Source: Bacillota bacterium (GTDB lineage Bacteria > Bacillota_I > Bacilli_A > RF39 > UBA660). Taken from it: a stretch of 64,000 bases of DNA. This document shows, in pieces, positions 48,060 through 64,000 of the stretch; the first letter of the stretch is position 1, and the number at the start of each line of letters is the position of its first letter. The position numbers and the translations under genes were made by a program. Below the pieces are notes generated by a model. The model was not told the DNA's origin. It worked only from the letters and a program-made list of their open reading frames with translations, and did not search any database. The DNA is taken from positions 31,110 to 95,109 of the forward strand of contig SVAL01000006.1 of NCBI GenBank assembly GCA_015059405.1. The letters are read 5' to 3'.

Positions 48060-48153
48060 TCTTTTTTTACGTCCTTAGAATATGTTTTATTATAAATAAA
48101 TTGACCTATATAAGTTAATAGAATATAATTAAATAAGTCTAGGAGGTATTGAA

Positions 48154-48666
48154 ATGACTGAGGCTTTAGTTGAGTTTTTTTTAAATATATTTGGAGGAAT
48201 CACCGGTTCCGAACTTGGTAAAAGTGTAACTGTTTTTATTGTTTCTATATTACCTATAATCGAATTAAGAGGTGGGATGATTGCCGCTGCTTTACTTAAA
48301 GTATCTTTAGTAAAAGGTTTTATTATCTGTTTTATAGGTAACATACTACCAGTTCCATTTATTATTTGGTTTATAAGAAAAATTTTAGATTGGATGAGAA
48401 ATGTTAAAGCATTTAGCAAAATTGTTAAATGGCTTGATAAAAAAGTTGTAGATAAAAAAGGTCAAATTGAAAAATTTGGTTTCTGGGGATTAGTTGCTTT
48501 TGTAGGAATTCCTCTACCTGGTACTGGTGCATGGACTGGTTCATTAATAGCTGCTATGCTTAATATGGATAAGAAAAAAGCATTTCTAGCTTGTACTATA
48601 GGAGTATTACTAGCAGGTGTTATAATGGCTATTTTCTCTTATGGAGTATTAGGATTAGTCTTTTAA
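48154..48666 (+). CDS. Small multidrug export-like (COG2426-type) membrane protein
   Basis: ILPIIELRGGMIAAALLKVSLVKGFIICFIGNILPVPFI; GIPLPGTGAWTGSLIAAML; GGAGG RBS. Confidence 0.75.
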   Translation: MTEALVEFFLNIFGGITGSELGKSVTVFIVSILPIIELRGGMIAAALLKVSLVKGFIICFIGNILPVPFIIWFIRKILDWMRNVKAFSKIVKWLDKKVVDKKGQIEKFGFWGLVAFVGIPLPGTGAWTGSLIAAMLNMDKKKAFLACTIGVLLAGVIMAIFSYGVLGLVF

Positions 48667-48708
48667 GTATTTGTAGGACTGAGGTTCTACATTTTTTCAA
48701 AAATATAT

Positions 48709-48740
48709 TGACATTTTAAAGATATGTATGTTATATTTTT
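48709..48740 (+). promoter_or_regulatory. Sigma-70-type promoter of tRNA-Gly copy 1
   Basis: TTGACA followed by ~TATATT with ~17-bp spacing, just upstream of the tRNA; similar arrangement at copy 2 (TTGACA at ~63623). Confidence 0.6.
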
Positions 48741-48754
48741 AAATGTCTACTGAT

Positions 48755-48828
48755 GCAGATGTAGTTTAATGGTAGAACCTCAGCCTTCCAAGCTGACTGC
48801 GTGGGTCCGATTCCCATCATCTGCTCCA
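48755..48828 (+). tRNA. tRNA-Gly (TCC), copy 1
   Basis: GCAGATGTAGTTTAATGGTAGAACCTCAGCCTTCCAAGCTGACTGCGTGGGTCCGATTCCCATCATCTGCTCCA; acceptor GCAGATG/CATCTGC. Confidence 0.96.
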
Positions 48829-48882
48829 TTTGAAAACAACTTACGAACCTATATGGTATCGTAAGTTTTTATTTTATCTTTT

Positions 48883-48911
48883 AATCGAACCCCACGTGAG
48901 TCGCTTGGAAG
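48883..48911 (-). pseudogene. Inverted tRNA-Gly 3'-half remnant (anticodon loop to T-loop)
   Basis: Reverse complement CTTCCAAGCGACTCACGTGGGGTTCGATT vs tRNA CTTCCAAGCTGACTGCGTGGGTCCGATT. Confidence 0.5.
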
Positions 48912-48959
48912 ATATATAAGTATACAATGTTCTCTTTCTAGAAAGGAGGACATTTTTTT

Positions 48960-49238
48960 ATGCTTGATTTTAAAACTATTGAAATATTAGAACCAAATAC
49001 TGAAATTCTAGAGATTATTAAAAGTTATTCTTATAAAACTAAAAAAGGAAAAATAAAACACTTGCTGAAAACAAATTTACAGTTTATTGAACCAACTGAG
49101 TACATAATTACACATCCTACTATGCTTACAATACTAGAATATAAAGTAAACGAGATTAGTAATAAAACATTCTATATTAAAGAACATAACGAAAAGTACA
49201 ATCTCAAAGAAATCAGACAAATTCTTACAAAAATTTAA
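48960..49238 (+). CDS. Small hypothetical protein at left end of the element
   Basis: 92-aa ORF with AAGGAGG RBS. Confidence 0.5.
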   Translation: MLDFKTIEILEPNTEILEIIKSYSYKTKKGKIKHLLKTNLQFIEPTEYIITHPTMLTILEYKVNEISNKTFYIKEHNEKYNLKEIRQILTKI

Positions 49239-49348
49239 GTTTATCCCCCTATAACTACTCTTTTAGTGCCAAATAAATGAGAGATATGCATTAAAAATTA
49301 ATTTTTTACCTTAACTTTTTTGATTTAAGTGGGGAAACAAGTGAGGAG

Positions 49349-51139
49349 ATGATTTTATTGAGATGTGGAATTTATGTAAGAGTTAGTACTGATGATCAAA
49401 GAGATAATGGTTATTCTATTGACTCACAACTTCGTATGATAAAAGAATATTGTGAGAAAAATGAATATGACATTATGGATGTATATAATGATGCTGGTCA
49501 TTCTGGAAAAGATTTAATGAGACCAGAAATGCAACGATTATTAAAAGATATTAAAGCTAAAAAGATTGATAAGTTGATTGCGATTAAAGTCGATAGACTT
49601 ACAAGAAATAATTATGATGGTTTTTGGTTACTAAATTATTGTGAAGAACATGATGTCAAAATTGAACTTATACTAGAGCCTTATGATGTATCTACTGCTA
49701 ATGGGGAGATGATATTTGGAATGAATTTAGTATTTGGTCAAAGAGAAAGAAAAGAAATTAGTGCTAGAACTAAGCGAGCAATGGAAGAAATGGCTTTAGA
49801 ACATATTCATCCTAGTAAAGCACCTTATGGATATATAAGAAATAAAGAAACTGGTTATTTAGAAGTTGAACCTATTGAAGCACAAGTTGTTAAGGAAATA
49901 TTTGAACTATGCAAACAAAGACATTCTACTAGAGGTATTGCTACTATTATGAAAGACAATAATGCTTATTTAAGTCAAGGTAAATGGAAAAGTGATAGAG
50001 TTTATAAAATACTTACTAATTCTATTTATATTGGTGTATTTGAATATGGAAAATATAGAAGAAAATCGCAAGACATTTTAAAAGTAAATAATTATTGTGA
50101 ACCTATTATTGATATTGAAACTTGGAATATTACAAGAAAAAATTTAGAGAAAAATAAACATCCTAATTATGGAGAACATATACATTTATTTACTGGAATA
50201 ATAAAATGTCCTGATTGTGGAAATATATTATCTTCTACTAATTCTTTTAAACATAGCGGTACTCCTAAACAAAAAACTTATTACCATTTAACTTGCAAAA
50301 ACTCTAATTGTAAGTCAAAAGGACTTCATTATAGTTCTGATAAAATTGAAAAAAGATTAGGAAGAATTTTAAATGAGTTAACAAGATATATGTATGAAAG
50401 TAAAAATGAAATCATAGTTTGTAATTCTAATAGGTCTAAAGAATTAAAAGATATTGATAAAGCTATTGATAAATTAAAACTGCAAGAAAAAAAATTAGTT
50501 GATTTATATTTAACTTCTAATTTGAATGTTGCTGCAATTAATCATAAAAATGAAATGATAAAAAAAGAAATTCAAAAACTAAATAATAAGAAAGATGCAT
50601 TAGATCCAGATAATGAATTTAAAGAATATACTCTTGAATTATCTAAAAAGCTAGATTGTGTTAAAGAAAATGATGAATACATATTTACTAATAATTTGGG
50701 ATTTTCATTTGTCTGGGATAGTTTAAATAGAAAAACTAAGAGAGATTTAATTCAAAGATTAATAGCTAGTTTAGAAATAGAAAGAGATAGAAATTACAAT
50801 ATTGAAATAAAAAATATTAGGTTTACCGATGAATTTATCTCTAAAAGTAATAAAGATTATCTAAAATATTTGAATGATATTTTAGAAGATAGCGAAATTG
50901 GAATTAAATATAAAGGACAAATTGATAAGAAAAAGTTAAAAGAATTATCTAATAAATATACAATAATTTCACTACAAAAATATGAAAATAATGAATATTC
51001 AGACAAAGAATTAAACATTTATTTAGAATTAATAAAAGAGCATTTTTACTATGATGGCATTATAAATTGTCCTTATATTGAAAATAATTTAGTTGTTGAC
51101 CAACTTTTATTAATACCCAAAGGAAAGGAAATGATCTAA
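49349..51139 (+). CDS. Large serine recombinase
   Basis: CGIYVRVSTDDQRDNGYSIDSQL; AIKVDRLTRNNYDGFWLL; recombinase domain APYGYIRNKETGYLEVEP; zinc ribbon IIKCPDCGNILSSTNSF; coiled coil. Confidence 0.93.
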   Translation: MILLRCGIYVRVSTDDQRDNGYSIDSQLRMIKEYCEKNEYDIMDVYNDAGHSGKDLMRPEMQRLLKDIKAKKIDKLIAIKVDRLTRNNYDGFWLLNYCEEHDVKIELILEPYDVSTANGEMIFGMNLVFGQRERKEISARTKRAMEEMALEHIHPSKAPYGYIRNKETGYLEVEPIEAQVVKEIFELCKQRHSTRGIATIMKDNNAYLSQGKWKSDRVYKILTNSIYIGVFEYGKYRRKSQDILKVNNYCEPIIDIETWNITRKNLEKNKHPNYGEHIHLFTGIIKCPDCGNILSSTNSFKHSGTPKQKTYYHLTCKNSNCKSKGLHYSSDKIEKRLGRILNELTRYMYESKNEIIVCNSNRSKELKDIDKAIDKLKLQEKKLVDLYLTSNLNVAAINHKNEMIKKEIQKLNNKKDALDPDNEFKEYTLELSKKLDCVKENDEYIFTNNLGFSFVWDSLNRKTKRDLIQRLIASLEIERDRNYNIEIKNIRFTDEFISKSNKDYLKYLNDILEDSEIGIKYKGQIDKKKLKELSNKYTIISLQKYENNEYSDKELNIYLELIKEHFYYDGIINCPYIENNLVVDQLLLIPKGKEMI

Positions 51140-51316
51140 ATGAAGGATAAAAATGATAAAGTTATTTGTGTTTATGATGAAAATAGAAAAGATGTTCAAG
51201 AAGTTATTCTTGAAGCATTTGAAAAATTTTTAAAAATAAAACTTAAAACCAATTCTTTTTCAGCAAGTAATAAGAAAGGAAGCAATAAAAATGACAATGA
51301 AATATTTAAAAATTAA
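51140..51316 (+). CDS. Small (58-aa) hypothetical protein abutting the recombinase stop, not in ORF track
   Basis: ATG directly follows recombinase TAA; MKDKNDKVICVYDENRKDVQEVILEAFEKFLKIKLKTNSFSASNKKGSNKNDNEIFKN*. Confidence 0.5.
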   Translation: MKDKNDKVICVYDENRKDVQEVILEAFEKFLKIKLKTNSFSASNKKGSNKNDNEIFKN

Positions 51317-51641
51317 TGGTTATGTTTTACCGAATTTAGTTACAAAAAATAGTAAAAGTAAAATAAATAAGTATGGATTATTAAGATTAGATTATCTAAA
51401 AACTCATAAAAAAGCATTATATGAAGTACTTCTTATGAAAGGTGAACTTACTAATCATCTTAATTTAATTAGTGAATTATGTGAAGAAAGATTAAATATT
51501 TTAATGAATAATTGTGTAAAAAATGATGAAAAACTATCTGAAAAAAATAAAAAGTTTAATCAATTAGAAGGGGTAAAACTCATGAGCAATTATAAAAATT
51601 GTGCTGAAGAAGTAATCTTTAAAGAATTAATTTATGTATAG
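51291..51641 (+). CDS. Small hypothetical protein of the mobile element
   Basis: 116-aa intact ORF overlapping the preceding small ORF. Confidence 0.45.
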   Translation: MTMKYLKINGYVLPNLVTKNSKSKINKYGLLRLDYLKTHKKALYEVLLMKGELTNHLNLISELCEERLNILMNNCVKNDEKLSEKNKKFNQLEGVKLMSNYKNCAEEVIFKELIYV

Positions 51642-51740
51642 CGTGTGAGTACACTTTGCATTTTTGGTATTAGCCAGCACTGCAAGTTTACTCCCGCCAC
51701 TTGCGAAACTGTGGGAATTATCCCAAACCCTAAAAAAGAA
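51642..51740 (+). other. Candidate origin of transfer (oriT)-like region
   Basis: GC-richer than surroundings; imperfect inverted repeat GAGTACACTTTGCA...TGCAAGTTTACTC (51647-51660/51681-51693), CCAC...GTGG (51697-51714), TGGGAATTATCCCA (51712-51725), directly before a RHH gene. Confidence 0.6.
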
Positions 51741-51745
51741 AGGAG

Positions 51746-52051
51746 ATGATAACTATTAGAGTAAGAAATATAAAGCTAAATGTTTTTCTTAATGAAGAAG
51801 AACAAAAACTATTAAAAGAAAAATCTAATAAAGCCAGATTAACACAATCTGACTTTATTAGAAATTTAATTATTGAATATGATAATACTAATTTGCCTAA
51901 TGTTGATATAGAAAATATTAATAACGTAATTTCATCAACTATTGATGATTTAAATAAACTGCGTGATACAATGTATAGACTGAGATATTATCAATTGGTT
52001 GAATTTATAGATAGTATAATCGGTGAGCTATACAAGAACTATCAAAAGTAA
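51746..52051 (+). CDS. Ribbon-helix-helix/MobC-like protein
   Basis: IKLNVFLNEEEQKLLKEKSNKARLTQSDFIRNLIIEY; downstream of oriT-like DNA. Confidence 0.68.
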   Translation: MITIRVRNIKLNVFLNEEEQKLLKEKSNKARLTQSDFIRNLIIEYDNTNLPNVDIENINNVISSTIDDLNKLRDTMYRLRYYQLVEFIDSIIGELYKNYQK

Positions 52052-52082
52052 AAGAACAGATTTTTTTCTGTTCTTTTCGTTA
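52052..52082. terminator. Bidirectional terminator
   Basis: AAAGAACAGATTTTTTTCTGTTCTTTT between convergent genes. Confidence 0.65.
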
Positions 52083-52907
52083 ATTTATTAAAGTAAATTT
52101 GTAATCACAATTATTTGAATTATAAATATGTACAGAACTATCTATTGATACAGTATTATTCTTTGATGTTGTTGTAAATTTAAGCATTTCTTTTGAATTG
52201 TATGCTGTTCCATAATTTCCGTTTTGATAACCTTCTCTATAATCAATCCATAAAAAGCATATATTTTCATTCATGTTAGTTGCTTCAACTTTATATTTTC
52301 CATCTGGCAAATAATAAAAAATAACATTCTTTTTTTCAAATTCCATATATTTGCCATATTCACCAATTTCATTATATTTTATGGTATATACAGTTTCTTT
52401 GGGTTCTTCTTTAATTGCTTCTTTTTCACTTTCGTCGCTACTGGTTTCATTATCAACAGAATCATCTTTAATAGGTACATTTTCTTCTTTATCAACAACA
52501 TTTGATTGGGAACCATTATCTTCTGTTTCTACATTTTCGACTGGAGTACAAATTATCCATACGAATAGTATTAATATTGGTAATACAATTCTAGCAATTT
52601 TTATATATTTTTCATCAATTTGACTAAACTTATCTTCTATTAAAGTATAGAAAACCTTAAATAAACTTAATCCAAATAATATAGCGAATATACTGGATAC
52701 AATATCTTCAGTAAATGATGATAGATATACTAATATTAGTAACCCACCAACACCATATAAAAATCCATTCCATATTTTACTAGCAAGGCCACCAATATCT
52801 CCAGGAGTTCTAACTGCTTTCATTTTTTCATCATAAGGTGTTCCACATTTTGGACAATATATGTAATCATCCTTGTATTCTTTTTTACATTTTCTACATA
52901 TCTTCAT
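52080..52907 (-). CDS. Zinc-ribbon membrane protein
   Basis: CRKCKKEYKDDYIYCPKCGTPY, TM helices, Ser/Glu-rich linker, C-terminal soluble domain. Confidence 0.6.
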   Translation of the reverse strand: MKICRKCKKEYKDDYIYCPKCGTPYDEKMKAVRTPGDIGGLASKIWNGFLYGVGGLLILVYLSSFTEDIVSSIFAILFGLSLFKVFYTLIEDKFSQIDEKYIKIARIVLPILILFVWIICTPVENVETEDNGSQSNVVDKEENVPIKDDSVDNETSSDESEKEAIKEEPKETVYTIKYNEIGEYGKYMEFEKKNVIFYYLPDGKYKVEATNMNENICFLWIDYREGYQNGNYGTAYNSKEMLKFTTTSKNNTVSIDSSVHIYNSNNCDYKFTLIN

Positions 52908-52916
52908 AGAAACCTC

Positions 52917-53744
52917 CTATTTAAAATAACTTTCTGGAATATCATAATTTGGTTTATCTTTTATAGTTTCTTGCAACTCTTTAGCAGCCGCTTCAATTTG
53001 TGGATTATAGTTCAAGACTGTTTGTTCTTCTTCTGGCTTTAAAAATGATTTTGGAACCGGAGTTGAAGATAAAACTCTTAATTGATCTACAATCATTTGT
53101 GCAGTATTAACAGAGTTATTATAAGCCGAACTTGATTGGTCAATTGTTTTTGATAATATCACTATTTCAGTATTAAAGCCTTTAATGTTTACATTAACAC
53201 CTATATGATGACAGGTTGGTATTTCGTCTGAGGTAGTTACTTGATTATTATTTCCTTTTGTAGTTGTTTTTCCTAATGCAGAACCACCAACAACTGCTCC
53301 AACTGGACCTAATATTAACCCACCAGCAACCGCACCACCTAATGATGCATGCTTTTTAGATTTTTGATTATTAGTACCTGTTGTGTTTGTCACTGTTCTA
53401 AATCCATCATTTTTAACCATTTCTGCACCTTTAATATCAGAAAAAGGATAAGTAGTTCCATTAATTGAAACAATTCCTTCAGTTAAATTATAAGTAAAAT
53501 TATTACCTATTGATTTCCATCTACTCGTAGCTATTCTATTAATTTCATTTTGTTTTGCTTTTTCAAGTTGAGCTAACTTGTTTTGAGCATTTTTGACTTT
53601 GGTATTATATTCTTTGTCTCTGTCTTTATGAATTTTTTTATCTACTTTTTCTAAATACTTTATAAACTTGGCTTGATTAATTCCACAATAACCGCAAAAA
53701 ATATCATCATCATCAATCTTTTTTTGACATTTTACACACTTCAT
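52917..53744 (-). CDS. Zinc-ribbon protein with glycine-rich hydrophobic segment
   Basis: CVKCQKKIDDDDIFCGYCG; coiled coil; GGAVAGGLILGPVGAVVGGSALG. Confidence 0.6.
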   Translation of the reverse strand: MKCVKCQKKIDDDDIFCGYCGINQAKFIKYLEKVDKKIHKDRDKEYNTKVKNAQNKLAQLEKAKQNEINRIATSRWKSIGNNFTYNLTEGIVSINGTTYPFSDIKGAEMVKNDGFRTVTNTTGTNNQKSKKHASLGGAVAGGLILGPVGAVVGGSALGKTTTKGNNNQVTTSDEIPTCHHIGVNVNIKGFNTEIVILSKTIDQSSSAYNNSVNTAQMIVDQLRVLSSTPVPKSFLKPEEEQTVLNYNPQIEAAAKELQETIKDKPNYDIPESYFK

Positions 53745-53855
53745 AAACTCACTCCTTAATTATTTAAATTATATCATATATTATAAAAATTAATATACAA
53801 ATTAGGACAAAAAGTTTACTTATTTATTTTTTTCATTGTGGGACAATAATTATAG

Positions 53856-54119
53856 GTGATGCAAATGATTGATAAATACAAGAAATATAATCCTGAATTC
53901 AAAGCAATTATTTGTAATAATATTAAAAACTTTCGTAAAGAAAAAGGAATGAGATTAATGGATTTGGCTGAAATTTTAGATATCTCTCCTGAATATTTAA
54001 AAAGAATAGAATCTCCAAATGATGAAAAAAAGAGTTGCTCATTATCCTTACTTTATAAAATATCAATAATTCTTGACAAAAAACTTGATGATTTTTTAAT
54101 AGACAATAGAAATAGCTAA
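53856..54119 (+). CDS. XRE-family HTH regulator
   Basis: NIKNFRKEKGMRLMDLAEILDISPEYLKRIESPNDEKKSCSLSLLYKISIILDKKLDDFL. Confidence 0.78.
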   Translation: MMQMIDKYKKYNPEFKAIICNNIKNFRKEKGMRLMDLAEILDISPEYLKRIESPNDEKKSCSLSLLYKISIILDKKLDDFLIDNRNS

Positions 54120-54134
54120 CGCTATTTTTTTTTG
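54108..54134 (+). terminator. Terminator between the HTH gene and the STAND gene
   Basis: AATAGC-TAAC-GCTATTTTTTTTTG. Confidence 0.6.
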
Positions 54135-54198
54135 TTTTCATTGAATAGACTAAAAAAATTCTATATAATAATAAACAAATTGTATAAGGAGGTATAAT

Positions 54199-57100
54199 AT
54201 GTCTAAATTTATAGAAATACAAAGTTCAATTTTAAGTCTGGGACCTGGAGAATATCAACGTCTTTGTTCTACATATGCCATTCAAAAATACAATCTTAAT
54301 AACATGCATGATATAGGCAGTAAAGAAGGTACTAATAAAACAACAATTGGAATTCCAGATTCATATTCAGTTGATGCTAATGGTAAATATATATTACTAA
54401 TGTATGGTACAGTTGAAAAAAAATCAGTTCCAAAGTTAACAACAGATATTATAGATGCTGCAAACGGCAAAAAGACAGGACTAATAAAAAAGCAAATAAA
54501 AGAAATCATATGTTTTCATACTAACACAAATATAAAGCCAGGAGAATATAATAAATTGGTTAATTTAATCCCAGATATTAAAATTACTTTAATTGATATT
54601 GACTCTTTAGCACATGATATAGATGAAAACTATCATAATATTGCAAATGATTATTTAAACATTCCTATAGATACAAATCAAATTAGTGATATAAATACAT
54701 TTATTGAGCGTTATGATAAGAATTCCATAAACTCCCCGTTAAATATTGATTTTGTATATAGAAAAGATAAAGATACAATTTACAAAAGTGCATTAGATTC
54801 AAAAATGACAATAGTTACTGGAAAACCAGGTACTGGGAAAACAAAAATATCTTTAGAAGTTCTAAAAGAACTTGAAAAAAATGAAAACTATTCTTCACTA
54901 TGTATTAGAATAAATGGATTAGAACTCTACAACGATCTCAAGACGGCCATAAAAAATGATAAAAATTATATTATATTTTTTGATGATATTAATAATCTTA
55001 ATGGATTAATGTCTGTGGTTGATTTAATTGTAACCAATAAAAATGAAAATATTAAAATATTAGCAACAGTTAGAGATTATTTGTTAGATGAAGTATTAAA
55101 AAAACTTAATTTACTAATAGAGCCGAGTGTATGCATCTTAAATAAAATGAGTGATTCGGAAATTATTAATATTTTAGAAAATACATATAATGTCAAAAAT
55201 AAAGAATGGCAACAAAAAATTCTAAAGATATCTAATGGTAATCCACGATTAGCAATAATGAGTTTTATTTCAGTTAGAGATGGAAAAATAGACTCTCTAA
55301 ATAGTGTTTATGATATTTTTAAAAATTATTATGATAATGTAATTAATTATAAAAAACTATCTGTTTATGAAATAAAAGTTCTGTTTTATATAGCTTTGTT
55401 ATCACCAATTAGTACATCAAACGAAATTGTAAGTAATTATCTAAAAGAATTGGAAATATTTGATACAGAAACATTAAAAAAATTAAGAGATATGGAATTA
55501 ATTGATTATTTTAATGATGATGCTTTAAAAATATGTGATCAAAATTTTTCTAATTATTTAGTATATAAGTATTTGATAATAGATAAGACTATTAATATTT
55601 CGAATTTATTAAAACAAGTATACCCTAATTTTATTAACAAATTTATAAATGTTATAAATATGATTAATGAACAATTTTATGATGAAAAAACGATTAATTA
55701 TATAACACAAGAGATAGATACTGTTTGGAATGAAGAACCATATAATAGTGACTGGAAATTTGTAGATTATTTCCATAATGTTAATGTATCAAAAGCATTA
55801 CTTAAAATAAAAAAGAAAATTGAAAGTTATGCTAAAGAAGAAATGCCTGAGAAAATAAAATATGAAAACAATGTATATTTAAGTGATAATTTATTAAGTT
55901 TAATATCTGATTTCAAAGATACTGAATACTTAAAATTATCTTTTGAATTATTATTATCATATCTTGAAAAAAGACCTAGTTTATATAATGAAATATGTAA
56001 AAGTATAAAGGATTATTGGCTAATAACAAATCCATATCCAGATTTTTTGTTAGAAACAGAAATTATTAACATATTGTTTTCAAAGTATAAAACAACAAAC
56101 ATAATTAAAATGAGAGAAATATATAGAATTTTATTAGAACAATCTTTATTATATTGTTTAGAATTAGAGTTTCATATTAGCAAACAAGGAAATACTCCAA
56201 GAACTATTAATTTCATTACAATAAAATTACAAGATAATGATAAAGTTTTCTCATTTAGAAAACACCTATATGATATAGTATTTCAATTGTGCAATGAAGA
56301 TGAAACTAATTATAATATATTATTAAATGAGTTAATTTGGTTCTACGATGAAGATCAAAAAGCAATATTGGAAAATGATATAAAATATTTAGACGAAAAG
56401 TTTTTTGTAACATGGGATAATATATCAATAATACAAGGTAAAATACTATTTTTACTAAAAGAAAAATGTCAAAAGTTTAATATAGAACCACCAACTTCAT
56501 TAGAAAAATATAAAGAATGTTCAGAGTTTCTAATAATTAATATGTTCGAGAAATATGATTATGATGAAAAAAACGATGAATTATTGTGCTACTTAGAAAA
56601 TAAGAGTCAAGATTGCTATAACACGATATTTCTAATACTTAAAAAGGTTGAAGAACATAATATAAATGTTGATAGTTGGAAAATGCATAATTCATTAGAC
56701 CTATTATTTAAACAAGTATTAGAAAAAGATACAACTTTATTTGAAGAAATATTTATTTTATATTTAGAATCAGATTGCCCTTTTACAAATGGGTTGTTCT
56801 TTATTAGAAATCTTGTAGATAAAAATATACTAGAAAAAACATTAGACAATATAATAAAAAGCAGTACATCTAAAAAATACTATTTATTATCCTGTATACT
56901 AAATAATTATTATGATGAAAAATATATACTAGTAGTAAAAGATTTTATAAAAAATCAAAAAACTATGAATAAATATACTTTATCAATTGAAGCTATTTTT
57001 GAATACTCTAAATATAATGAAGATTTATTAGAAAACTACACTAAAGACATACTAACTGAAAATGATTTTGGACTATATTCTAGTTTTACAAATTCATTTG

Positions 57101-57816
57101 TTGATAAAGAATTTGTTGAAACTATATACAATGCTTTTGATAATAAAAAAACACTTGAAGAATTATATTTAAAATCTATAAAATGTCATAGCGATTACAA
57201 TGGGAATATGGGATTTTTATTATGTATAAATAATTACGATTTTCTAAATAAAATACTTGAAACCAAATCATATGATCATACTGGAAAAATAAGAAATATT
57301 GTAAAAAACATATGGAAACATGCTAAATATAAAGACATTATCTCATATAATTATGATAAAATAATTGAGTCTAATTTCGGATATTTACGATTACATACGT
57401 TATTCGATTTTGATAATGAAGAAAATATAAAACAGAATCAATTAGAATGGTTTAAAGAGAAAATATTAGAAATTAAAGAAGATAAAGATAAAATTTATTA
57501 TGTATTTTATGTAATTGGTGAAAAAGAAAATTGTTTAAAAAAAGAATTAATTCTTTTTCTATTAGATAACACAAGTAATATTGAAATATTTAAACAAATA
57601 AGTTTCTTTTCGCATTCGGAATCATGGAGCGGAAGCAGAATTCCAAATATCGAACGAAAAATTGAATTTATTCAATCAATATTAAGTGAGATAAAAGCCA
57701 AAAGTGATTTGATATACATGGAACATATAGATTATTTAAATGAAAGAATAAAGCGTTATAAAAAAGAAATTAAAAGAACTCAAATAGAAGAATACATAGA
57801 TGATTTTCTTAATTAA
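54199..57816 (+). CDS. STAND-type NTPase, Avs-like candidate (nuclease-like N-terminus, NTPase, C-terminal helical repeat sensor)
   Basis: N-terminal LGPGEYQRLCSTYAIQKYNLNNMHDIGSKEGTNKTTIGIPDSYSVDANGKYILLMYGT; Walker A TGKPGTGKTKIS; Walker B YIIFFDDINNL; long helical C-terminus ending SHSESWSGSRIPNIERKIEFIQSI. Confidence 0.7.
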   Translation: MSKFIEIQSSILSLGPGEYQRLCSTYAIQKYNLNNMHDIGSKEGTNKTTIGIPDSYSVDANGKYILLMYGTVEKKSVPKLTTDIIDAANGKKTGLIKKQIKEIICFHTNTNIKPGEYNKLVNLIPDIKITLIDIDSLAHDIDENYHNIANDYLNIPIDTNQISDINTFIERYDKNSINSPLNIDFVYRKDKDTIYKSALDSKMTIVTGKPGTGKTKISLEVLKELEKNENYSSLCIRINGLELYNDLKTAIKNDKNYIIFFDDINNLNGLMSVVDLIVTNKNENIKILATVRDYLLDEVLKKLNLLIEPSVCILNKMSDSEIINILENTYNVKNKEWQQKILKISNGNPRLAIMSFISVRDGKIDSLNSVYDIFKNYYDNVINYKKLSVYEIKVLFYIALLSPISTSNEIVSNYLKELEIFDTETLKKLRDMELIDYFNDDALKICDQNFSNYLVYKYLIIDKTINISNLLKQVYPNFINKFINVINMINEQFYDEKTINYITQEIDTVWNEEPYNSDWKFVDYFHNVNVSKALLKIKKKIESYAKEEMPEKIKYENNVYLSDNLLSLISDFKDTEYLKLSFELLLSYLEKRPSLYNEICKSIKDYWLITNPYPDFLLETEIINILFSKYKTTNIIKMREIYRILLEQSLLYCLELEFHISKQGNTPRTINFITIKLQDNDKVFSFRKHLYDIVFQLCNEDETNYNILLNELIWFYDEDQKAILENDIKYLDEKFFVTWDNISIIQGKILFLLKEKCQKFNIEPPTSLEKYKECSEFLIINMFEKYDYDEKNDELLCYLENKSQDCYNTIFLILKKVEEHNINVDSWKMHNSLDLLFKQVLEKDTTLFEEIFILYLESDCPFTNGLFFIRNLVDKNILEKTLDNIIKSSTSKKYYLLSCILNNYYDEKYILVVKDFIKNQKTMNKYTLSIEAIFEYSKYNEDLLENYTKDILTENDFGLYSSFTNSFVDKEFVETIYNAFDNKKTLEELYLKSIKCHSDYNGNMGFLLCINNYDFLNKILETKSYDHTGKIRNIVKNIWKHAKYKDIISYNYDKIIESNFGYLRLHTLFDFDNEENIKQNQLEWFKEKILEIKEDKDKIYYVFYVIGEKENCLKKELILFLLDNTSNIEIFKQISFFSHSESWSGSRIPNIERKIEFIQSILSEIKAKSDLIYMEHIDYLNERIKRYKKEIKRTQIEEYIDDFLN

Positions 57817-57857
57817 GAATTAATATTAATTTAAAAAGATAATTTGTTATACTTCCA

Positions 57858-57886
57858 TTGAAAAAATATAAAAATTCATATATAAT
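57858..57886 (+). promoter_or_regulatory. Sigma-70-type promoter candidate downstream of the STAND gene
   Basis: TTGAAA-17 bp-TATAAT. Confidence 0.55.
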
Positions 57887-57892
57887 GGTTAT

Positions 57893-57975
57893 AGAAAGAG
57901 AACAAGTTCGTAAGCTGTAGTTTAACTGCTCCATATGAATTTAAAGAACTTAGTAAAAGCTGAGTTCTTTTTTTT
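57893..57975 (+). ncRNA. Candidate ~83-nt small RNA ending in an intrinsic terminator
   Basis: Follows the promoter above and ends AAGAACTTAG-TAAAAG-CTGAGTTCTTTTTTTT. The 3' part is antisense to the end of the 57922-58737 ORF. Confidence 0.4.
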
Positions 57976-58737
57976 ATATTCCACGGAGTCAGCTTGTTTA
58001 TTTTCAAAACATTTATTTCTTTCGCACATAATAATTATAATGTCATCAAATAAACTATACCATTTTACTTGTACATATTCTCGACATTTTTCATATTTGG
58101 GATTATATTTTAAATTTTTATCCCAATTTTGCAAAAATAAACCTCTAACATGAACCCCAGTGGATTCAATTTTTTTATTACATAAATATTTTAATATTTC
58201 TTCTTTTGTTGCCCAAATAAAATCATTTGCAACACCTAACACAATGGCGTCTACTGTTACTCGATAATTTACATCTGTTTGCATCAGAAATCTTTTTATC
58301 AATATTTCATGTATTTTTTCTAATTCTTTATTTATTTCTTTTATTTCTTCTTGATGGTCCTTCTTGTATTCTTCAGAACTCATTCTAATAACTCCTGTAT
58401 TATTAGCAGTTCCATCTGAATATAAATACTTTAATAATTTTTCAGATTCCTTAAAACTATTTCTTTTTAAATAATTTATGAATTTGTCGTTTTTTTCTAA
58501 ATGCACTGAATTCTTCGACCCACTTTTTATGCTTAGTCCCTTTTTTCTTCCCTTTACAATAACAACAACATCTACTTTAGCATGCTTTTCATACTTATAA
58601 GCAGTTATTAAATCTTTTTTTTTGATTTTTGGATATAATGTCTGAATTAATTCTTGTAACAATAAATTAATCTCACAAAATTTTTTACCATTTAAATTAT
58701 TAATAAATACAAGTTCTGTTAAATATCCGTTTCTCAT
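57922..58737 (-). CDS. Putative restriction-endonuclease-like (PD-(D/E)XK-type) protein
   Basis: TELVFINNLNG...KYEKHAKVDVVVIVKGRKKGLSIKSGSKNSVHLE suggests a D...(S/E)xK core. Confidence 0.45.
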   Translation of the reverse strand: MRNGYLTELVFINNLNGKKFCEINLLLQELIQTLYPKIKKKDLITAYKYEKHAKVDVVVIVKGRKKGLSIKSGSKNSVHLEKNDKFINYLKRNSFKESEKLLKYLYSDGTANNTGVIRMSSEEYKKDHQEEIKEINKELEKIHEILIKRFLMQTDVNYRVTVDAIVLGVANDFIWATKEEILKYLCNKKIESTGVHVRGLFLQNWDKNLKYNPKYEKCREYVQVKWYSLFDDIIIIMCERNKCFENKQADSVEYKKKNSAFTKFFKFIWSS

Positions 58738-58801
58738 CTTATCACCAATATTATTATTATTTGTTAACGAAAAAATTCCCTATAAAACAAGATGATTATT
58801 A

Positions 58802-59251
58802 TCATCTTGTTTTTCTATACTCTTCTTCTGGTATTGAATAATAGTAATAGTCTTTATCATCTCTTATTAATTTAAATCCATTATATACAATACTTGTTAT
58901 AGCGGCTACATTTATTCTTTTTGTTTGTATTTCTACTTCTAAACTATTATCTAAAATAATTTCTTTTAAAATACCTAATGCCTCTGTACCATATCCTTTA
59001 CCACGATGTTTTTTTAAAACACCCATATCAATTTCATTTATATTTGTTCTTGGATTATTTACAATCATAACAAACCCAATACTTTTTCCATCTTTTTCAA
59101 TTAATGCTGAATAACAAGAGTTTGCAAGTCTACTTCTAACTATCCTTTCTTGAGCAAATGTATTTTTTAAATCTTCATCTTGATTAATTATATCAATTAC
59201 TTTTATTTCTTCGTTAAAGTCTAATTTTCTTAATCTTACATTTTTTTCCAT
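58802..59251 (-). CDS. GNAT-family acetyltransferase
   Basis: IGFVMIVNNPRTNINEIDMGVLKKHRGKGYGTEALGILKEIILDN. Confidence 0.83.
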   Translation of the reverse strand: MEKNVRLRKLDFNEEIKVIDIINQDEDLKNTFAQERIVRSRLANSCYSALIEKDGKSIGFVMIVNNPRTNINEIDMGVLKKHRGKGYGTEALGILKEIILDNSLEVEIQTKRINVAAITSIVYNGFKLIRDDKDYYYYSIPEEEYRKTR

Positions 59252-59292
59252 ATATTCTACTCCTAATTTAATTATATTATGTTTGAAACATT

Positions 59293-60279
59293 TTATTTGT
59301 TTTTTATTTTTACTTTATAAGTATTGTCATCTTCAGGTATTAACGCGATTATATCCTGTGATGATATACTTCCTTGATGTTCTATCTCACCCTCATTATG
59401 TTGTATAATAGTTTCTACCGTTAAATTCAAATTGTTTTTTCTATATAACATTTCAAAAACTGAACTAGGATTTTTCAAACTATTATTATCAATCATAAGA
59501 ATTACTTTTTCTAGTGAAGACTCTTTTTTTTCTTCTGAAAACCTTTTAATAAAATCTAAAATATAGAACAATTCCTCTTCAGTAATTTGAATGTCGTTTT
59601 TGGAAATAGCAGCAAGTATTTTACTAATCTTTTTTTCTTCATCATTTTCAAGTGGTTCATAATACCCAGTAAATGCACAAAAGATATCATCTAATAATAA
59701 ACCAGAAAATTCACCAGATTCACCATAAGTATCTAAAATATATCCTAAATCTGATGAAAGATAAATTGTATTAAATCTTTCTTTAGTAAATCCATATCCA
59801 CCTGGTACGTTAATTAGTGAAGGTAATGCAAAAATATGATTAGAATTATCTTTGTTTCTTTCTTTTATACACTTATATACAAGATCTAGGTCTAAACAAC
59901 TTTGATATACATCACATTTATATTTATCATTTAACGTAAGAAGACCAGCATTTAGTATTTGACTAATATTAGATTTTCTAGTTATATGAAATAAAAATCC
60001 ATCTCTTATAAAATTCTTATATAGTTCTTTTTGTATTTCCTCTTTGGTTAATCCTTTTACTTCTTCTAAATAACGATATGGTAGTTTTTCAGAATATCTA
60101 TGATTAATAAAATATTCAAAGTTATCAAAATCACGAGTTGATATTAGGAAATAAAGGGCTTTTTCTAAAAATAATCGTGCGTGTTTATATGAACGTTTAT
60201 TTATGTATATTAATTCTTCTTTAAAATTATCACTTTCAATTGATTCTTTTAATCTTTGGTAGAACTCTAATTTTTCCAT
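59293..60279 (-). CDS. Putative ADP-ribosyltransferase-fold protein
   Basis: GFLFHITRKSNISQILNAGLLTLNDKY ... NTIYLSSDLGYILDTYG resembles ART-fold H...Y/S patterns. Confidence 0.4.
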   Translation of the reverse strand: MEKLEFYQRLKESIESDNFKEELIYINKRSYKHARLFLEKALYFLISTRDFDNFEYFINHRYSEKLPYRYLEEVKGLTKEEIQKELYKNFIRDGFLFHITRKSNISQILNAGLLTLNDKYKCDVYQSCLDLDLVYKCIKERNKDNSNHIFALPSLINVPGGYGFTKERFNTIYLSSDLGYILDTYGESGEFSGLLLDDIFCAFTGYYEPLENDEEKKISKILAAISKNDIQITEEELFYILDFIKRFSEEKKESSLEKVILMIDNNSLKNPSSVFEMLYRKNNLNLTVETIIQHNEGEIEHQGSISSQDIIALIPEDDNTYKVKIKNK

Positions 60280-60356
60280 AATATCACCTCCAAGTATTTA
60301 TTATTATAATTAATAACTTTATTTAGTCAAATAAAAAAATGTAGATAAATCTACAT

Positions 60357-61325
60357 TTATACTTTAGGATGGTTTCTTTTTTCTAAAGTTACTTCTTTCA
60401 TAGTTTCTAAATTATTTCTAAATAGTGGCATAATCCATCCTTGTTCTTTTGGTGTTAGTACACTGGTTGCTACTTTTTCTGTTCTAGATAAAATACTTTC
60501 TTGATTATCAACTATAGGATTAATAATATCACTTACATATTCTGGATAGTTATCTAGTAAACAGATAATCATTTGTTTTCTATCAATTAAACATCCATTT
60601 AAATTGTAATAGTTTTCTGGGATACCAGGTATATGAATTGTTGAATTATCAAATAATGTTGAAAATCTTGTTTCTTGGGTTTTAGTATTACGAATAATTC
60701 CATAATTACTATTATTACGATCAGCCTGATTGATTAATAAATCAAAAACAATCATTTTAAAATAATCTTTTTTGATTTGTTCTTTTTCATTTTCATTAAT
60801 ATTTGTATAATCCAAAGATAAGGGAAACATGTTAATAGCTAGCATGATATCTTTTTCATCTTCTAAAACAGGTCTTACTTCTGGTTGTCCATTACTATGA
60901 TAGAAAGTTTGTCCTGTTCTTTTTCGCATTTCTATTACTTGATTATATAAAATTTCTATTTCTGGATTTTTATTTTTTACAATAGCATTTGTTACTTCAG
61001 AAAACATTACTAGGTTTTCATTTTCTTTAGCTACATTCTTACTAATAATACCAATAGCATTATCATCTGTATCATAAACCTTTAAAGTTTCTGCGATATC
61101 AAAATCTAAAATATGTTTACCAACTATTGATAGAAAAAATTCTAAATCATCTAGCATACCACTAGTATTTAAAGAACTATTTTTGTAAAAACCGGTTTCA
61201 CTCCCAAAATAAGATACTTTTTGTGTTTCATTTTTTCCTACGCCTACATTTCCAACTATTTCCATAGACGTAGTTTTATTTTCACATGTTTCTTCATTTA
61301 AATAATACTTTAATTTTACATCCAT
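60357..61325 (-). CDS. HipA/CtkA-like kinase-fold protein
   Basis: DYFKMIVFDLLINQADRNNSNYGII (DRxxxNxG loop) and RFSTLFDNS (metal-binding Asp). Confidence 0.55.
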   Translation of the reverse strand: MDVKLKYYLNEETCENKTTSMEIVGNVGVGKNETQKVSYFGSETGFYKNSSLNTSGMLDDLEFFLSIVGKHILDFDIAETLKVYDTDDNAIGIISKNVAKENENLVMFSEVTNAIVKNKNPEIEILYNQVIEMRKRTGQTFYHSNGQPEVRPVLEDEKDIMLAINMFPLSLDYTNINENEKEQIKKDYFKMIVFDLLINQADRNNSNYGIIRNTKTQETRFSTLFDNSTIHIPGIPENYYNLNGCLIDRKQMIICLLDNYPEYVSDIINPIVDNQESILSRTEKVATSVLTPKEQGWIMPLFRNNLETMKEVTLEKRNHPKV

Positions 61326-61338
61326 AATTATCACCTAT

Positions 61339-62328
61339 TTATTTTATATAGCATGGTGGTTGAAGAATCTTTACTAATCGTTTTTCTGCTTCTTCAATCG
61401 AGCAATCAGTTAATTTTGTTGCTCCCGAGAATTGATTTCCTCCACCTGATAGTTCTTGCATTACTGCACCTACATCTACTTTTTCTTTAGAGCGAGCGCT
61501 TATTGAAATAGTATCATTACCTATATTACCAATTGCAAAAGCAGCATCCACTTTATACTTTAATAAATAATCAGCTACTTTAGCTAGTTCTTCCTTGGTA
61601 TATTCTATTTCAGGATCTGCACATACTGTTGCAATACTATAAGTAGCAATTTTTGCTCTACTTACTAATTCTTGTACTCTTCTATCACTAACAAAGTCTT
61701 CTGTAAATAAATCTGTTACACGATTCATACTGGCTCCAAATTCTAATAGTCGTGCTACCATTCTCATTGTTTCAGAAGATGTATTTTTTGTTAGTTTATT
61801 TGTATCTAAATAAATTCCTGCAAGCAGATAGTTTGCTACTTCTGGAGTTGGTTTTATTTTATACATACATAGTAGTTTTGAAACTATTTCTGATGCACTA
61901 GATACATTTGGATCTATATATGTTTCACTTGCCTTAACAGTGGCATCATCCATATTATGGTGATCTATTATAATAATTTTTTCTGGATTAGTTAATTCAT
62001 CTTTTAAACTAACTAAATAACTTTTATTTACGTCCGTTAAAACAAATAAATCTTCTTCATTTCTTGATTGTAAATATTTTTCTCTATTAAGTATAGAAAA
62101 GTCTGCCTTTGCCGCTTCTATTACTAACTGAACTCCTGGATCTATTTGATGAAAAGGATCATCTACAACTATTGAAGATGGTTTCTTCATTCTTCGTGCT
62201 ATTAATGATAAACCAATAGCTGAACCTATAGCGTCAAAATCTATTCCAGTATGTGGAACAATTACTACATTATTTGCTTCTAGTATTTTTTGTTCCATAT
62301 TTACTCTTAAATTTTTTATTTCTTCCAT
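61339..62328 (-). CDS. DHH/DHHA1-family phosphoesterase
   Basis: VIVPHTGIDFDAIGSAIGLSLIARRM; IIIDHHNMDD; SGGGNQFSGATKL. Confidence 0.85.
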   Translation of the reverse strand: MEEIKNLRVNMEQKILEANNVVIVPHTGIDFDAIGSAIGLSLIARRMKKPSSIVVDDPFHQIDPGVQLVIEAAKADFSILNREKYLQSRNEEDLFVLTDVNKSYLVSLKDELTNPEKIIIIDHHNMDDATVKASETYIDPNVSSASEIVSKLLCMYKIKPTPEVANYLLAGIYLDTNKLTKNTSSETMRMVARLLEFGASMNRVTDLFTEDFVSDRRVQELVSRAKIATYSIATVCADPEIEYTKEELAKVADYLLKYKVDAAFAIGNIGNDTISISARSKEKVDVGAVMQELSGGGNQFSGATKLTDCSIEEAEKRLVKILQPPCYIK

Positions 62329-62345
62329 TTTATCTCCACCCTGAA

Positions 62346-63137
62346 TTAATTATTTAAGTTATTTAAATACTTTTTAATTATAGTTACTATTTCTTCATGA
62401 GTAATATAATTACTTATTATAGCACCATTTATGCTTTTGTCATAGCGTTGTTCATTACCAAATAAATCAGTAACTTTTCCGCCTGCTTCTTCAACTATGA
62501 TTTTTACTGCTGCTATATCACAGTTTTTATGTTCTGTCCCTGGAAATATTGAAAAGCAAAACTCTCCTGATGCAACACACATAGAAGCTCGAATTACACT
62601 TCCTAAATCTACTAGCCAAGTTTTTTGACCTAATTCTTTGATAGCATCATGTATATCATACTCGGCTGTTGGCCATACATCAAAGTTAGCAAAGTTTCTT
62701 TTTCCATCTAATATATTATTATTTACATGAATTAATTCATTGTTTTTGTATGCTCCTTCACCTTTAATAGCAGTGTATATGTTATTAGTAAAAGGATCCA
62801 AAACAACCCCAACTTCAGGTTTGCCATCTATTACCAGTGCAAGTGAAAACACTGCTGTTGGTATGTGCCTAGAATACATTGCTGTACCATCTACAGGATC
62901 ACATACCCATACATATTTGCTTTCTCCAAATTGTTCTTCTTCACCATCTACTGAATGATCTGGATACTTTTCTTTTACCTTTTCTATTAAATAACTATTA
63001 ATCTCTTTATCTGCTTTAGTTACGATTGTATTATCTTCTTTATATGTAGAACCATTATCTTCATAAAAATATTTAAGCATTATTTCTTTTGCTTTAAGAG
63101 CTATATCTTTAGCAAATTCTAAATATTCTTTATTCAT
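62346..63137 (-). CDS. Inositol monophosphatase-family protein
   Basis: VDGEEEQFGESKYVWVCDPVDGTAMYSRHIP; HKNCDIAAVKIIVEEAGGKVTDLFG. Start moved to 63137. Confidence 0.88.
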   Translation of the reverse strand: MNKEYLEFAKDIALKAKEIMLKYFYEDNGSTYKEDNTIVTKADKEINSYLIEKVKEKYPDHSVDGEEEQFGESKYVWVCDPVDGTAMYSRHIPTAVFSLALVIDGKPEVGVVLDPFTNNIYTAIKGEGAYKNNELIHVNNNILDGKRNFANFDVWPTAEYDIHDAIKELGQKTWLVDLGSVIRASMCVASGEFCFSIFPGTEHKNCDIAAVKIIVEEAGGKVTDLFGNEQRYDKSINGAIISNYITHEEIVTIIKKYLNNLNN

Positions 63138-63144
63138 ATATTCA

Positions 63145-63534
63145 CTACCCTTCATAGTTCCATAAACTTAATTTGCCGTTTATTTCTATTGGAGATATTT
63201 TTTCTATATTTTCTAATTTAAAACCATAACCATCCCAATTACTATCTTTGTTTATTACACCATAATATACTTTATCATCTTTTTTTTGTAGTTCTTCTTT
63301 TAGTGTATCATCTACATAAACACAGTCAGTAATTGTTGCTTTAGCTATAATGCATCCACTAGGGTATTCTAAATTTAAATATTTAAATCTTTCCATTGCT
63401 TTTTTATCAACACCCTTACCAGCATGAATTAATATTTCACCACGATATGAAGTCTTCCAAGTACGAAATTCATATTCTTTTAATCCTTCAGCAATAAGTG
63501 TTGCAAATGGTTGTTTGATTGTAATAACCTTCAT
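63145..63534 (-). CDS. ASCH-domain protein
   Basis: ITIKQPFATLIAEGLKEYEFRTWKTSYRGEILIHAGKG. Confidence 0.85.
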   Translation of the reverse strand: MKVITIKQPFATLIAEGLKEYEFRTWKTSYRGEILIHAGKGVDKKAMERFKYLNLEYPSGCIIAKATITDCVYVDDTLKEELQKKDDKVYYGVINKDSNWDGYGFKLENIEKISPIEINGKLSLWNYEG

Positions 63535-63669
63535 AATACCCTCTCCAATATATATAATATTATATCATATTTATTATTTTTGCAAAATTAAGACTGAGGT
63601 TCTACATTTTTTCCAAAAAGTGTTGACAATTCAAGTATGTATATGTTATATTTGTAAATGTCTACTGAT

Positions 63670-63743
63670 GCAGATGTAGTTTAATGGTAGAACCTCAGCC
63701 TTCCAAGCTGACTGCGTGGGTCCGATTCCCATCATCTGCTCCA
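63670..63743 (+). tRNA. tRNA-Gly (TCC), copy 2
   Basis: 74-nt sequence identical to 48755-48828. Confidence 0.96.
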
Positions 63744-63780
63744 TTGAAGAATCTGTTCGGAAAATCCGAACTTGATATAT

Positions 63781-63808
63781 AAATCTATTCGAAAGAATAG
63801 ATTTTTTT
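63781..63808 (+). terminator. Terminator downstream of tRNA-Gly copy 2
   Basis: AAATCTATTC-GAAA-GAATAGATTTTTTT. Confidence 0.7.
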
Positions 63809-63851
63809 GTGTTTATAAATCATCCATCCAAAAAGAAAGGATGGTGAAATA

Positions 63852-64000
63852 ATGAGACATTTTAATATCTAGTGCAGATAAACAAAAAATTGAAAGCTAT
63901 ATTGATAAAATCGATGAAGTTAATGAAGAATATCGTAATATAAAAGAATTATCTTCTTCTTTAAATAGTTTAAGTCAAACAATAAAAGAAGATAAAGAAA
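63852..64000 (+). pseudogene. Frameshifted/edge-truncated ORF
   Basis: ATG at 63852 with RBS reads MRHFNI*. A +1-shifted frame stays open to the window end (ISSADKQKIESYIDKIDEVNEEYRNIKELSSSLNSLSQTIKEDKE). Confidence 0.45.

What the first reader, a model, noticed from the sequence alone, without database searches (positions are those of the whole stretch)
53856..57816. Candidate defence system: HTH regulator plus 1205-aa Avs-like STAND NTPase as cargo
The large protein has an N-terminal ~150-aa domain with a GIPDxY...GKYI...YGT pattern reminiscent of PD-(D/E)XK-type effectors, a STAND-like NTPase (GKPGTGKT, FFDDINNL) and a ~700-aa helical C-terminus with a distinctive terminal SWSGSRIP motif. 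Established knowledge: Avs/STAND proteins pair nuclease effectors, NTPase and TPR-like sensors to recognise phage proteins. The usual acidic residue preceding the catalytic Lys/Thr seems replaced (LLMYGT), so the effector may be atypical.
Basis: partly seen in the sequence, partly recalled or inferred. Interest (0 to 1): 0.75.

Follow-up and report, generated by a model that had tools for sequence, protein, structure and literature searches.

The report
Mobile antiphage STAND protein, remodelled nuclease
A gut-type Firmicute carries, on a 9-kb mobile element plugged into a tRNA gene, a large NLR-like protein that most likely senses a phage protein and answers with a DNA-cutting domain whose usual catalytic residues have been lost or moved, while an unusual Asp/Lys/Asp set is kept in every relative.

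Summary
In detail: an XRE-type HTH gene (53856-54119) and an intact 1205-aa protein (54199-57816). The large protein has a REase-fold N-terminus (about residues 1-155), an nSTAND3-type STAND NTPase (158-460) and an all-helical solenoid ending in a conserved SWSGSRIP cap. The closest solved structures to residues 1-500 are Avs4 and Avs5, then NLR-like proteins. About 16 divergent relatives (51% identity down to about 20%) occur in Bacillota, Leptospira plasmids, a betaproteobacterium and two prophages, often beside restriction-modification, SIR2-HerA, AbiD or PD-Lambda-4 genes. Both genes lie inside a 9.1-kb serine-recombinase element inserted at the 3' end of tRNA-Gly, shown by an empty site in a congener. 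In the effector domain D54, K79 and D83 are invariant in 20 of 20 sequences, whereas the motif-III acid is M, E, Q, V, N or A and the motif-III lysine is absent from all 20. This suggests a nuclease with relocated catalytic residues or, less likely, a non-catalytic domain. The HTH has its own terminator and was not found directly beside the relatives, so it is probably no core component. Verdict: an unnamed Avs-like family, a new variant of a known kind. Phage defence is inferred, not shown.

The parts
48755..48828 (+). tRNA-Gly(TCC), integration target
   Evidence: ARAGORN, Rfam tRNA
48821..48834 (.). left attachment core CTGCTCCATTTGAA (3' end of tRNA-Gly), attL of the mobile element
   Evidence: 14-nt repeat 13/14 identical to 57926-57939; empty site in congener G527 joins the tRNA directly to the sequence that follows 57926 here
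48840..48848 (.). terminal inverted repeat CTTACGAAC near the left end of the element (partner GTTCGTAAG 57906-57914)
   Evidence: one exact copy of each in 48000-64000
49349..51139 (+). large serine recombinase, the presumed integrase of the element
   Evidence: Pfam Resolvase 6e-33, Recombinase 5e-17; CcrB-like NCBIfam hit below cut-off
51291..51641 (+). TnpV transposon-associated protein
   Evidence: Pfam TnpV 5e-26
51746..52051 (+). NikA-like mobilisation protein (ribbon-helix-helix)
   Evidence: Pfam NikA-like 1.9e-8
53856..54119 (+). XRE/Cro-type HTH protein, probably a local regulator, not a conserved component
   Evidence: Pfam HTH_3 6e-7; no HTH gene directly beside the gene in the relatives' loci
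54108..54129 (+). intrinsic terminator after the HTH gene (9-bp stem then T run)
   Evidence: RNA fold -7.4 kcal/mol, z -3.5
54141..54169 (+). promoter-like site TTGAAT-17-TATAAT upstream of the STAND gene
   Evidence: 10/12 consensus match; such matches are common in this AT-rich DNA
54199..57816 (+). 1205-aa Avs-like STAND protein
54199..54663 (+). effector domain, residues 1-155, REase-like fold; invariant D54, K79, D83; motif III acid replaced by M68
54670..55578 (+). nSTAND3-type NTPase with helical/winged-helix extension, residues about 158-460; Walker A 208-215, Walker B 258-263, R292 in TVRDY
   Evidence: Pfam PF20720 1.9e-7; VIA Z 16.7 to EfAvs5, 17.2 to NLRC4
55579..57813 (+). helical solenoid, putative sensor, residues about 461-1205; least conserved part, with a conserved C-terminal cap SWSGSRIP (57622-57645)
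   Evidence: AlphaFold2 pLDDT 83.6, all helices but one hairpin; identity gradient and cap alignment
57906..57914 (.). terminal inverted repeat GTTCGTAAG near the right end of the element
57926..57939 (.). right attachment core CTGCTCCATATGAA, attR; followed by the displaced tRNA-Gly terminator 57943-57970

Best explanation
An Avs-like antiphage sensor carried as cargo on a 9.1-kb serine-recombinase element. The helical C-terminal solenoid binds a phage protein made during infection (inferred). Binding releases the nSTAND3-type NTPase, which takes up ATP and assembles several copies (inferred from Avs4, Avs5 and NLR structures). Clustering brings the N-terminal REase-fold domains together and switches on DNA cleavage, so the infected cell and the phage are both stopped (inferred). 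The REase-fold domain does not use the textbook motif: motif III has lost both its acid (M68) and its lysine. D54 on the second core strand, with K79 and D83 on the helix after the third strand, is the only charged set kept in all 20 sequences and is the most likely active site. This would combine the lysine migration known from COG4636 with the acid migration known from CCGG-family restriction enzymes. Shown: architecture, predicted fold, conservation, mobile context, defence neighbourhood. Inferred: phage sensing, oligomerisation, DNA cleavage.
For: Best Foldseek match of residues 1-500 in the whole PDB is Avs4 bound to phage portal (E 1e-14), next Avs5 (1e-10) and SAMD9. VIA: EfAvs5 Z 16.7 over 186 residues, NLRC4 17.2 over 310, Avs4 13.2 with the alignment running from model residue 3 to 500, effector included. 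Pfam nSTAND3 above cut-off here and in four of five full-length relatives scanned (up to 8.5e-14); nSTAND3 is the NTPase of Avs5 (PMC12931631). The predicted core beta(55-58)-beta(64-69)-alpha(76-87)-beta(100-107) puts D54 at strand 2 and K79/D83 on the following helix. D54, K79 and D83 are 20/20 invariant, including two standalone-domain proteins; position 68 is M9 E5 Q3 V1 N1 A1. Identity to the nearest relative by region: effector 67%, NTPase 54-56%, solenoid 44%, C-terminal cap 57%, as expected for a conserved effector with a fast-evolving sensor. Neighbours of relatives: SIR2-HerA, type I R-M, type II R-M, type IV REase, PD-Lambda-4_A, AbiD, GajB-like helicase; ten host genes as control gave one irrelevant weak hit. 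Two relatives lie in prophages next to terminase genes. Residue migration has precedent (PMC551604, PMC4652773).
Against: No sequence-level match of the N-terminal domain to any nuclease family. The effector domain was not folded and searched alone, and the AlphaFold model rests on 8 sequences with the loop 41-50 below pLDDT 50. No coordinates were available to measure whether K79 and D83 reach D54. Motif III acid and lysine are both gone here, which also fits a dead nuclease. Pfam nSTAND3 is permissive: the same search rings at low score in 14 control genomes and passes its cut-off in 7. Neighbour genes were chosen by eye, so the defence enrichment is not an unbiased statistic. No target and no phage assay.
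Confidence: 0.62

Rival explanations
1. Avs-like sensor whose REase-fold domain has lost catalysis and works as a non-catalytic module: it binds DNA or another protein, or forms the oligomer interface that recruits a separate killer.
For: Motif III acid replaced by M, V, N or A in 12 of 20 sequences and the motif lysine missing from all. Non-catalytic PD-(D/E)XK domains with new functions exist (RecC; PMC1185551).
Against: D54, K79 and D83 are kept in 20 of 20 while the rest of this domain diverges to about 40% identity or less; a domain released from catalysis would not be expected to keep a charged Asp-Lys-Asp set. The effector is the best conserved part of the protein. No conserved partner gene was seen beside it.
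Confidence: 0.18
2. The effector acts on a substrate other than double-stranded DNA, for example RNA or a modified or structured nucleic acid, through the altered active site; otherwise the system works as in the best explanation.
For: The REase fold supports varied phosphodiesterase chemistries (general knowledge), and the altered site with a conserved glycine-rich loop (G40, G44, T48, G51) departs from the textbook DNA-cutting motif.
Against: The nearest structural relative, Avs4, is described as a genome-cutting Avs (PMC12931631). No direct sign of RNA as substrate.
Confidence: 0.12
3. Not a defence protein but a STAND regulator or an element-maintenance (addiction) function of the mobile element.
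For: STAND proteins also act in transcription (MalT; PMC10427625, listed), and an HTH gene sits next to it here.
Against: No DNA-binding domain recognised in the protein; relatives sit on unrelated replicons (Leptospira plasmids, prophages, chromosomes) without this HTH or recombinase beside them but repeatedly with defence genes.
Confidence: 0.08

Closest known systems
Avs4 (AVAST type 4; PDB 8dgf, portal sensor with nuclease effector)
   Same: Best structural match of residues 1-500; N-terminal REase-fold domain, STAND NTPase, large helical C-terminus, single protein.
   Different: 13-15% identity in the structural alignment; not recognised by phmmer or by PADLOC and NCBIfam models; motif III residues lost; NTPase closer to the Avs5 type by Pfam and by VIA Z.
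Avs5 (AVAST type 5; PDB 9jap, 9nc9; SIR2-nSTAND3)
   Same: Same NTPase family, nSTAND3. Walker A, Walker B and the conserved Arg about 28-29 residues after Walker B (R292 here, Arg438 in PaAvs5-1) have similar spacing. VIA Z 16.7.
   Different: REase-fold effector instead of a SIR2 NADase; longer C-terminal region.
COG4636 PD-EXX-K nucleases and CCGG-family restriction enzymes (Cfr10I, NgoMIV, BsaWI)
   Same: REase folds whose catalytic Lys (COG4636) or second acid (CCGG family) has moved to a neighbouring helix; K79 and D83 lie on such a helix here.
   Different: Here both would have moved at once; no sequence homology; no STAND partner in those families.
NLR and SAMD9 proteins of animals
   Same: Fold of the NTPase module (NLRC4 Z 17.2, NOD2 16.8; SAMD9 among the top Foldseek hits).
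   Different: Different effectors and sensors; similarity of mechanism, not membership.

Membership tests
STAND NTPases (nSTAND3, PF20720) | P-loop NTPase of the STAND class matching the nSTAND3 profile above its cut-off | tested here: met
   31.4 bits against cut-off 27.2; relatives up to 52 bits. Caveat: the profile is permissive, so the fold evidence carries the claim.
STAND NTPases (nSTAND3, PF20720) | Walker A, Walker B and downstream Arg conserved | tested here: met
   GKPGTGKT 208-215, IIFFDD 258-263, TVRDY R292; invariant across relatives
Avs (AVAST) types 1-5 | match to a curated profile of a named Avs type | tested here: not met
   No Avs-named model in PADLOC-DB v2 at E<=1 or NCBIfam. 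No positive control was run to confirm which Avs types those libraries hold.
Avs (AVAST) types 1-5 | effector, STAND NTPase and repeat sensor in one polypeptide | tested here: met
   predicted architecture
Avs (AVAST) types 1-5 | activation by a phage protein leading to effector-dependent cell death | not testable with these tools
   needs phage and co-expression assays
Avs4 | N-terminal REase fold followed by the NTPase as in 8dgf | tested here: met
   Foldseek rank 1; VIA alignment spans model 3-500 on chain 2-520, rmsd 23.4, consistent with differently oriented domains
Avs4 | recognition of phage portal protein | not testable with these tools
   needs binding or co-expression assays
Avs5 | SIR2 NADase effector | tested here: not met
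   N-terminal domain is REase-like, no SIR2 hit in Pfam
Canonical PD-(D/E)XK nucleases | (D/E/Q)XK on core strand 3 | tested here: not met
   M68-Y-G here; the Lys is absent in all 20 sequences, the acid is E in 5 and Q in 3
PD-(D/E)XK superfamily (fold) | alpha-beta-beta-beta-alpha-beta core with Asp at strand 2 | tested here: inconclusive
   predicted secondary structure and the Avs4 alignment fit, but the domain was not folded and searched alone and strand 1 is short

The most novel reading that the evidence does not exclude
The family defines a new Avs-like type whose REase-fold effector is catalytically active through a doubly relocated site (D54 on strand 2, K79 and D83 on the next helix), with the motif-III carboxylate dispensable and lost more than once. 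None of the papers read here describes a layout that combines both migrations, in STAND effectors or elsewhere.
Probability: 0.35. Interest if true: 0.65.

Novelty: new variant of a known kind. Interest (0 to 1): 0.5.

Why it matters
It adds an unnamed, widely but thinly spread family to the bacterial NLR-like sensors: a full-length copy or fragment turned up in roughly 1-2% of Bacillota genomes sampled, and in Leptospira plasmids and prophages. The profiles of PADLOC and NCBIfam, and Pfam for the effector domain, miss it. It gives a direct test of how far the catalytic residues of a nuclease effector can move, since natural variants with E, Q, M, V, N and A at the motif-III acid are all at hand. 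Two copies sit beside terminase genes in prophages, which points to phage-versus-phage use.

Tried and rejected
Sequence search of the PDB with the protein or its profile gave only generic P-loop hits, not Avs. Two related-loci scans of viral contigs found nothing; a DNA pattern for KTTKGxPD found one true relative, the other 57 loci having no tblastn match. tblastn against phage records gave no match. Foldseek and VIA of the C-terminal half gave only generic HEAT/karyopherin solenoids with Z about 7-9, not meaningful; TPR motifs were not detected by Pfam. VIA's list for the N-terminal model is filled by the NTPase and shows no restriction enzyme; this says nothing about the effector fold. The viral structure library gave ATPases and one phage protein named NLR-like (A0A8S5V3T3, E 6e-9), not followed up. 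The idea that loss of the motif-III acid is one event was tested on an NTPase tree: M is not one clade and starred branches force at least two changes, but many forks are unresolved. The idea that the two tRNA-Gly copies (48755, 63670) bound one large island was rejected: the 157-nt repeat includes upstream DNA, and the empty-site comparison puts the right end at 57926-57939. Several literature searches returned irrelevant papers.

Full report
Observation. The window lies in a 1.54-Mb, low-GC genome bin; its nearest relative by this protein is a 'Mollicutes' MAG. The HTH ORF 53856-54119 and the 1205-aa ORF 54199-57816 exist as described. The STAND gene has a strong Shine-Dalgarno (AAGGAGG, 54186) and a promoter-like TTGAAT-17-TATAAT at 54141 (such matches are frequent in this AT-rich DNA), and is separated from the HTH gene by a 9-bp stem terminator. 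The two genes are therefore probably separate transcription units.

Mobile context. A congener genome (G527) carries the same small-export-protein gene, tRNA-Gly and tRNA terminator without the intervening DNA: there the tRNA 3' end runs straight into the sequence found here from 57926. In the window the 14-nt core CTGCTCCATTTGAA (48821) recurs as CTGCTCCATATGAA (57926), with a 9-bp inverted repeat CTTACGAAC/GTTCGTAAG just inside both ends. The element is thus about 9.1 kb and holds a large serine recombinase, TnpV, a NikA-like mobilisation protein, two zinc-ribbon proteins, the HTH gene and the STAND gene. The 271-aa ORF that begins at about 57922 on the other strand lies essentially outside it and has a homologous stretch in G527.

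Relatives. Full-length or partial relatives were found in Bacilli-like MAGs, Clostridia (Faecalicatena, Lachnospiraceae and others), Stenoxybacter (a betaproteobacterium), Leptospira plasmids and a viral contig. They are rare: about 1-2% of sampled Bacillota genomes, and in the sample from the phylum of Stenoxybacter only Stenoxybacter itself, the centre of that sample.

Domains. AlphaFold2 on eight natural sequences gave pLDDT 84.3 for residues 1-500 and 83.6 for 481-1205. VIA gives NLRC4 Z 17.2, NOD2 16.8, EfAvs5 16.7, and an Avs4 alignment covering model residues 3-500. The NTPase is nSTAND3 by Pfam, the NTPase family of Avs5 (PMC12931631), and its Walker A, Walker B and Arg spacing resembles that of PaAvs5-1. 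The Pfam profile alone is not specific; the fold match carries the claim. The C-terminal 745 residues are a helical solenoid with no specific structural match but a conserved terminal cap SWSGSxIP.

Effector active site. Predicted strands 55-58 and 64-69 and helix 76-87 fit the REase core with D54 entering strand 2. In 20 sequences D54, K79, D83, G40 and G44 are invariant. The motif-III acid position is M in 9, E in 5, Q in 3, and V, N and A in one each, and the motif-III lysine is never present, position 70 being T, G or S. E-bearing members therefore read PD-ExT-K, like the lysine-migrated COG4636 nucleases (PMC551604). In M-bearing members D83 stands 13 residues after the lysine position, close to the KX12-13E spacing of CCGG-family enzymes, where the acid has moved to this helix (PMC4652773). 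I infer a D54-K79-D83 site. The domain in isolation is not recognised by Pfam, even as the standalone 320-aa protein of L119.

Defence setting. Genes beside relatives include SIR2-HerA (L124), a type IV REase (L125), a type II R-M set of two methyltransferases and a REase (L128), HsdS, HsdM and HsdR of a type I R-M (L130), PD-Lambda-4_A (L019), a DUF262/HEC-06-like protein (L022), AbiD and a kinase-like protein (L024), and a GajB-like helicase (L025). Ten host genes scanned as a control gave one irrelevant weak hit. L052 lies in a prophage between the HNH/terminase genes and a transcriptional regulator, with portal, protease and capsid genes alongside; L128 is next to a terminase small subunit and has an anti-repressor nearby. 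Neighbours were picked by eye, so this is evidence of association, not a measured enrichment.

Conclusion. The protein works, most likely, like an Avs: phage-protein sensor, NTP-driven assembly, nuclease effector. It is not a member of a named Avs type by the profiles tested. The unusual point is the remodelled active site, which is conserved in a way that argues against decay. Novelty: new variant of a known kind.

Noticed in passing
48755-48834 and 57926-57939: A large serine recombinase element inserted at the 3' end of a tRNA gene, a site class more typical of tyrosine integrases (general knowledge); the tRNA terminator is displaced to the far end. The attR flank also carries TGTAGTTTAA, a piece of the tRNA 5' end, as if from a shortened tRNA copy.
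   Followed up: partly
63589-63745 and 48674-48830: A 157-nt, 92% identical repeat comprising tRNA-Gly and upstream DNA, 14.9 kb apart on the same strand.
   Followed up: partly
57922-58737 (-): 271-aa ORF just outside the element matches a PADLOC type II restriction enzyme model (5.7e-14); no methyltransferase was recognised nearby; a homologous stretch lies at tRNA-Gly in G527.
   Followed up: partly
60357-61334 (-) and 59293-60279 (-): Two further unusual ORFs next to the tRNA-Gly site: one matches candidate defence model PDC-M03A (1.6e-13), the other has no family; the spot may be a defence hotspot.
   Followed up: no
52080-53744 (-): Two adjacent 275-aa zinc-ribbon proteins of unknown function inside the element, one with a glycine-rich stretch, one with hydrophobic, membrane-like segments.
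   Followed up: no
L119:1477-2436 and L120: The effector domain occurs as a standalone protein of about 320 aa with Q at the motif-III acid, without STAND; in L120 the gene upstream has a PDFVL...FLQMK pattern that could be another PD-(D/E)XK protein.
   Followed up: no
L019:9881-13672: On a Leptospira plasmid the relative is followed directly by a full-length PD-Lambda-4_A protein (E 2e-273).
   Followed up: partly
L002, L017, L117/L122: Several relatives carry an in-frame stop or are split into two frames, which could be decay of a costly gene or assembly error.
   Followed up: no
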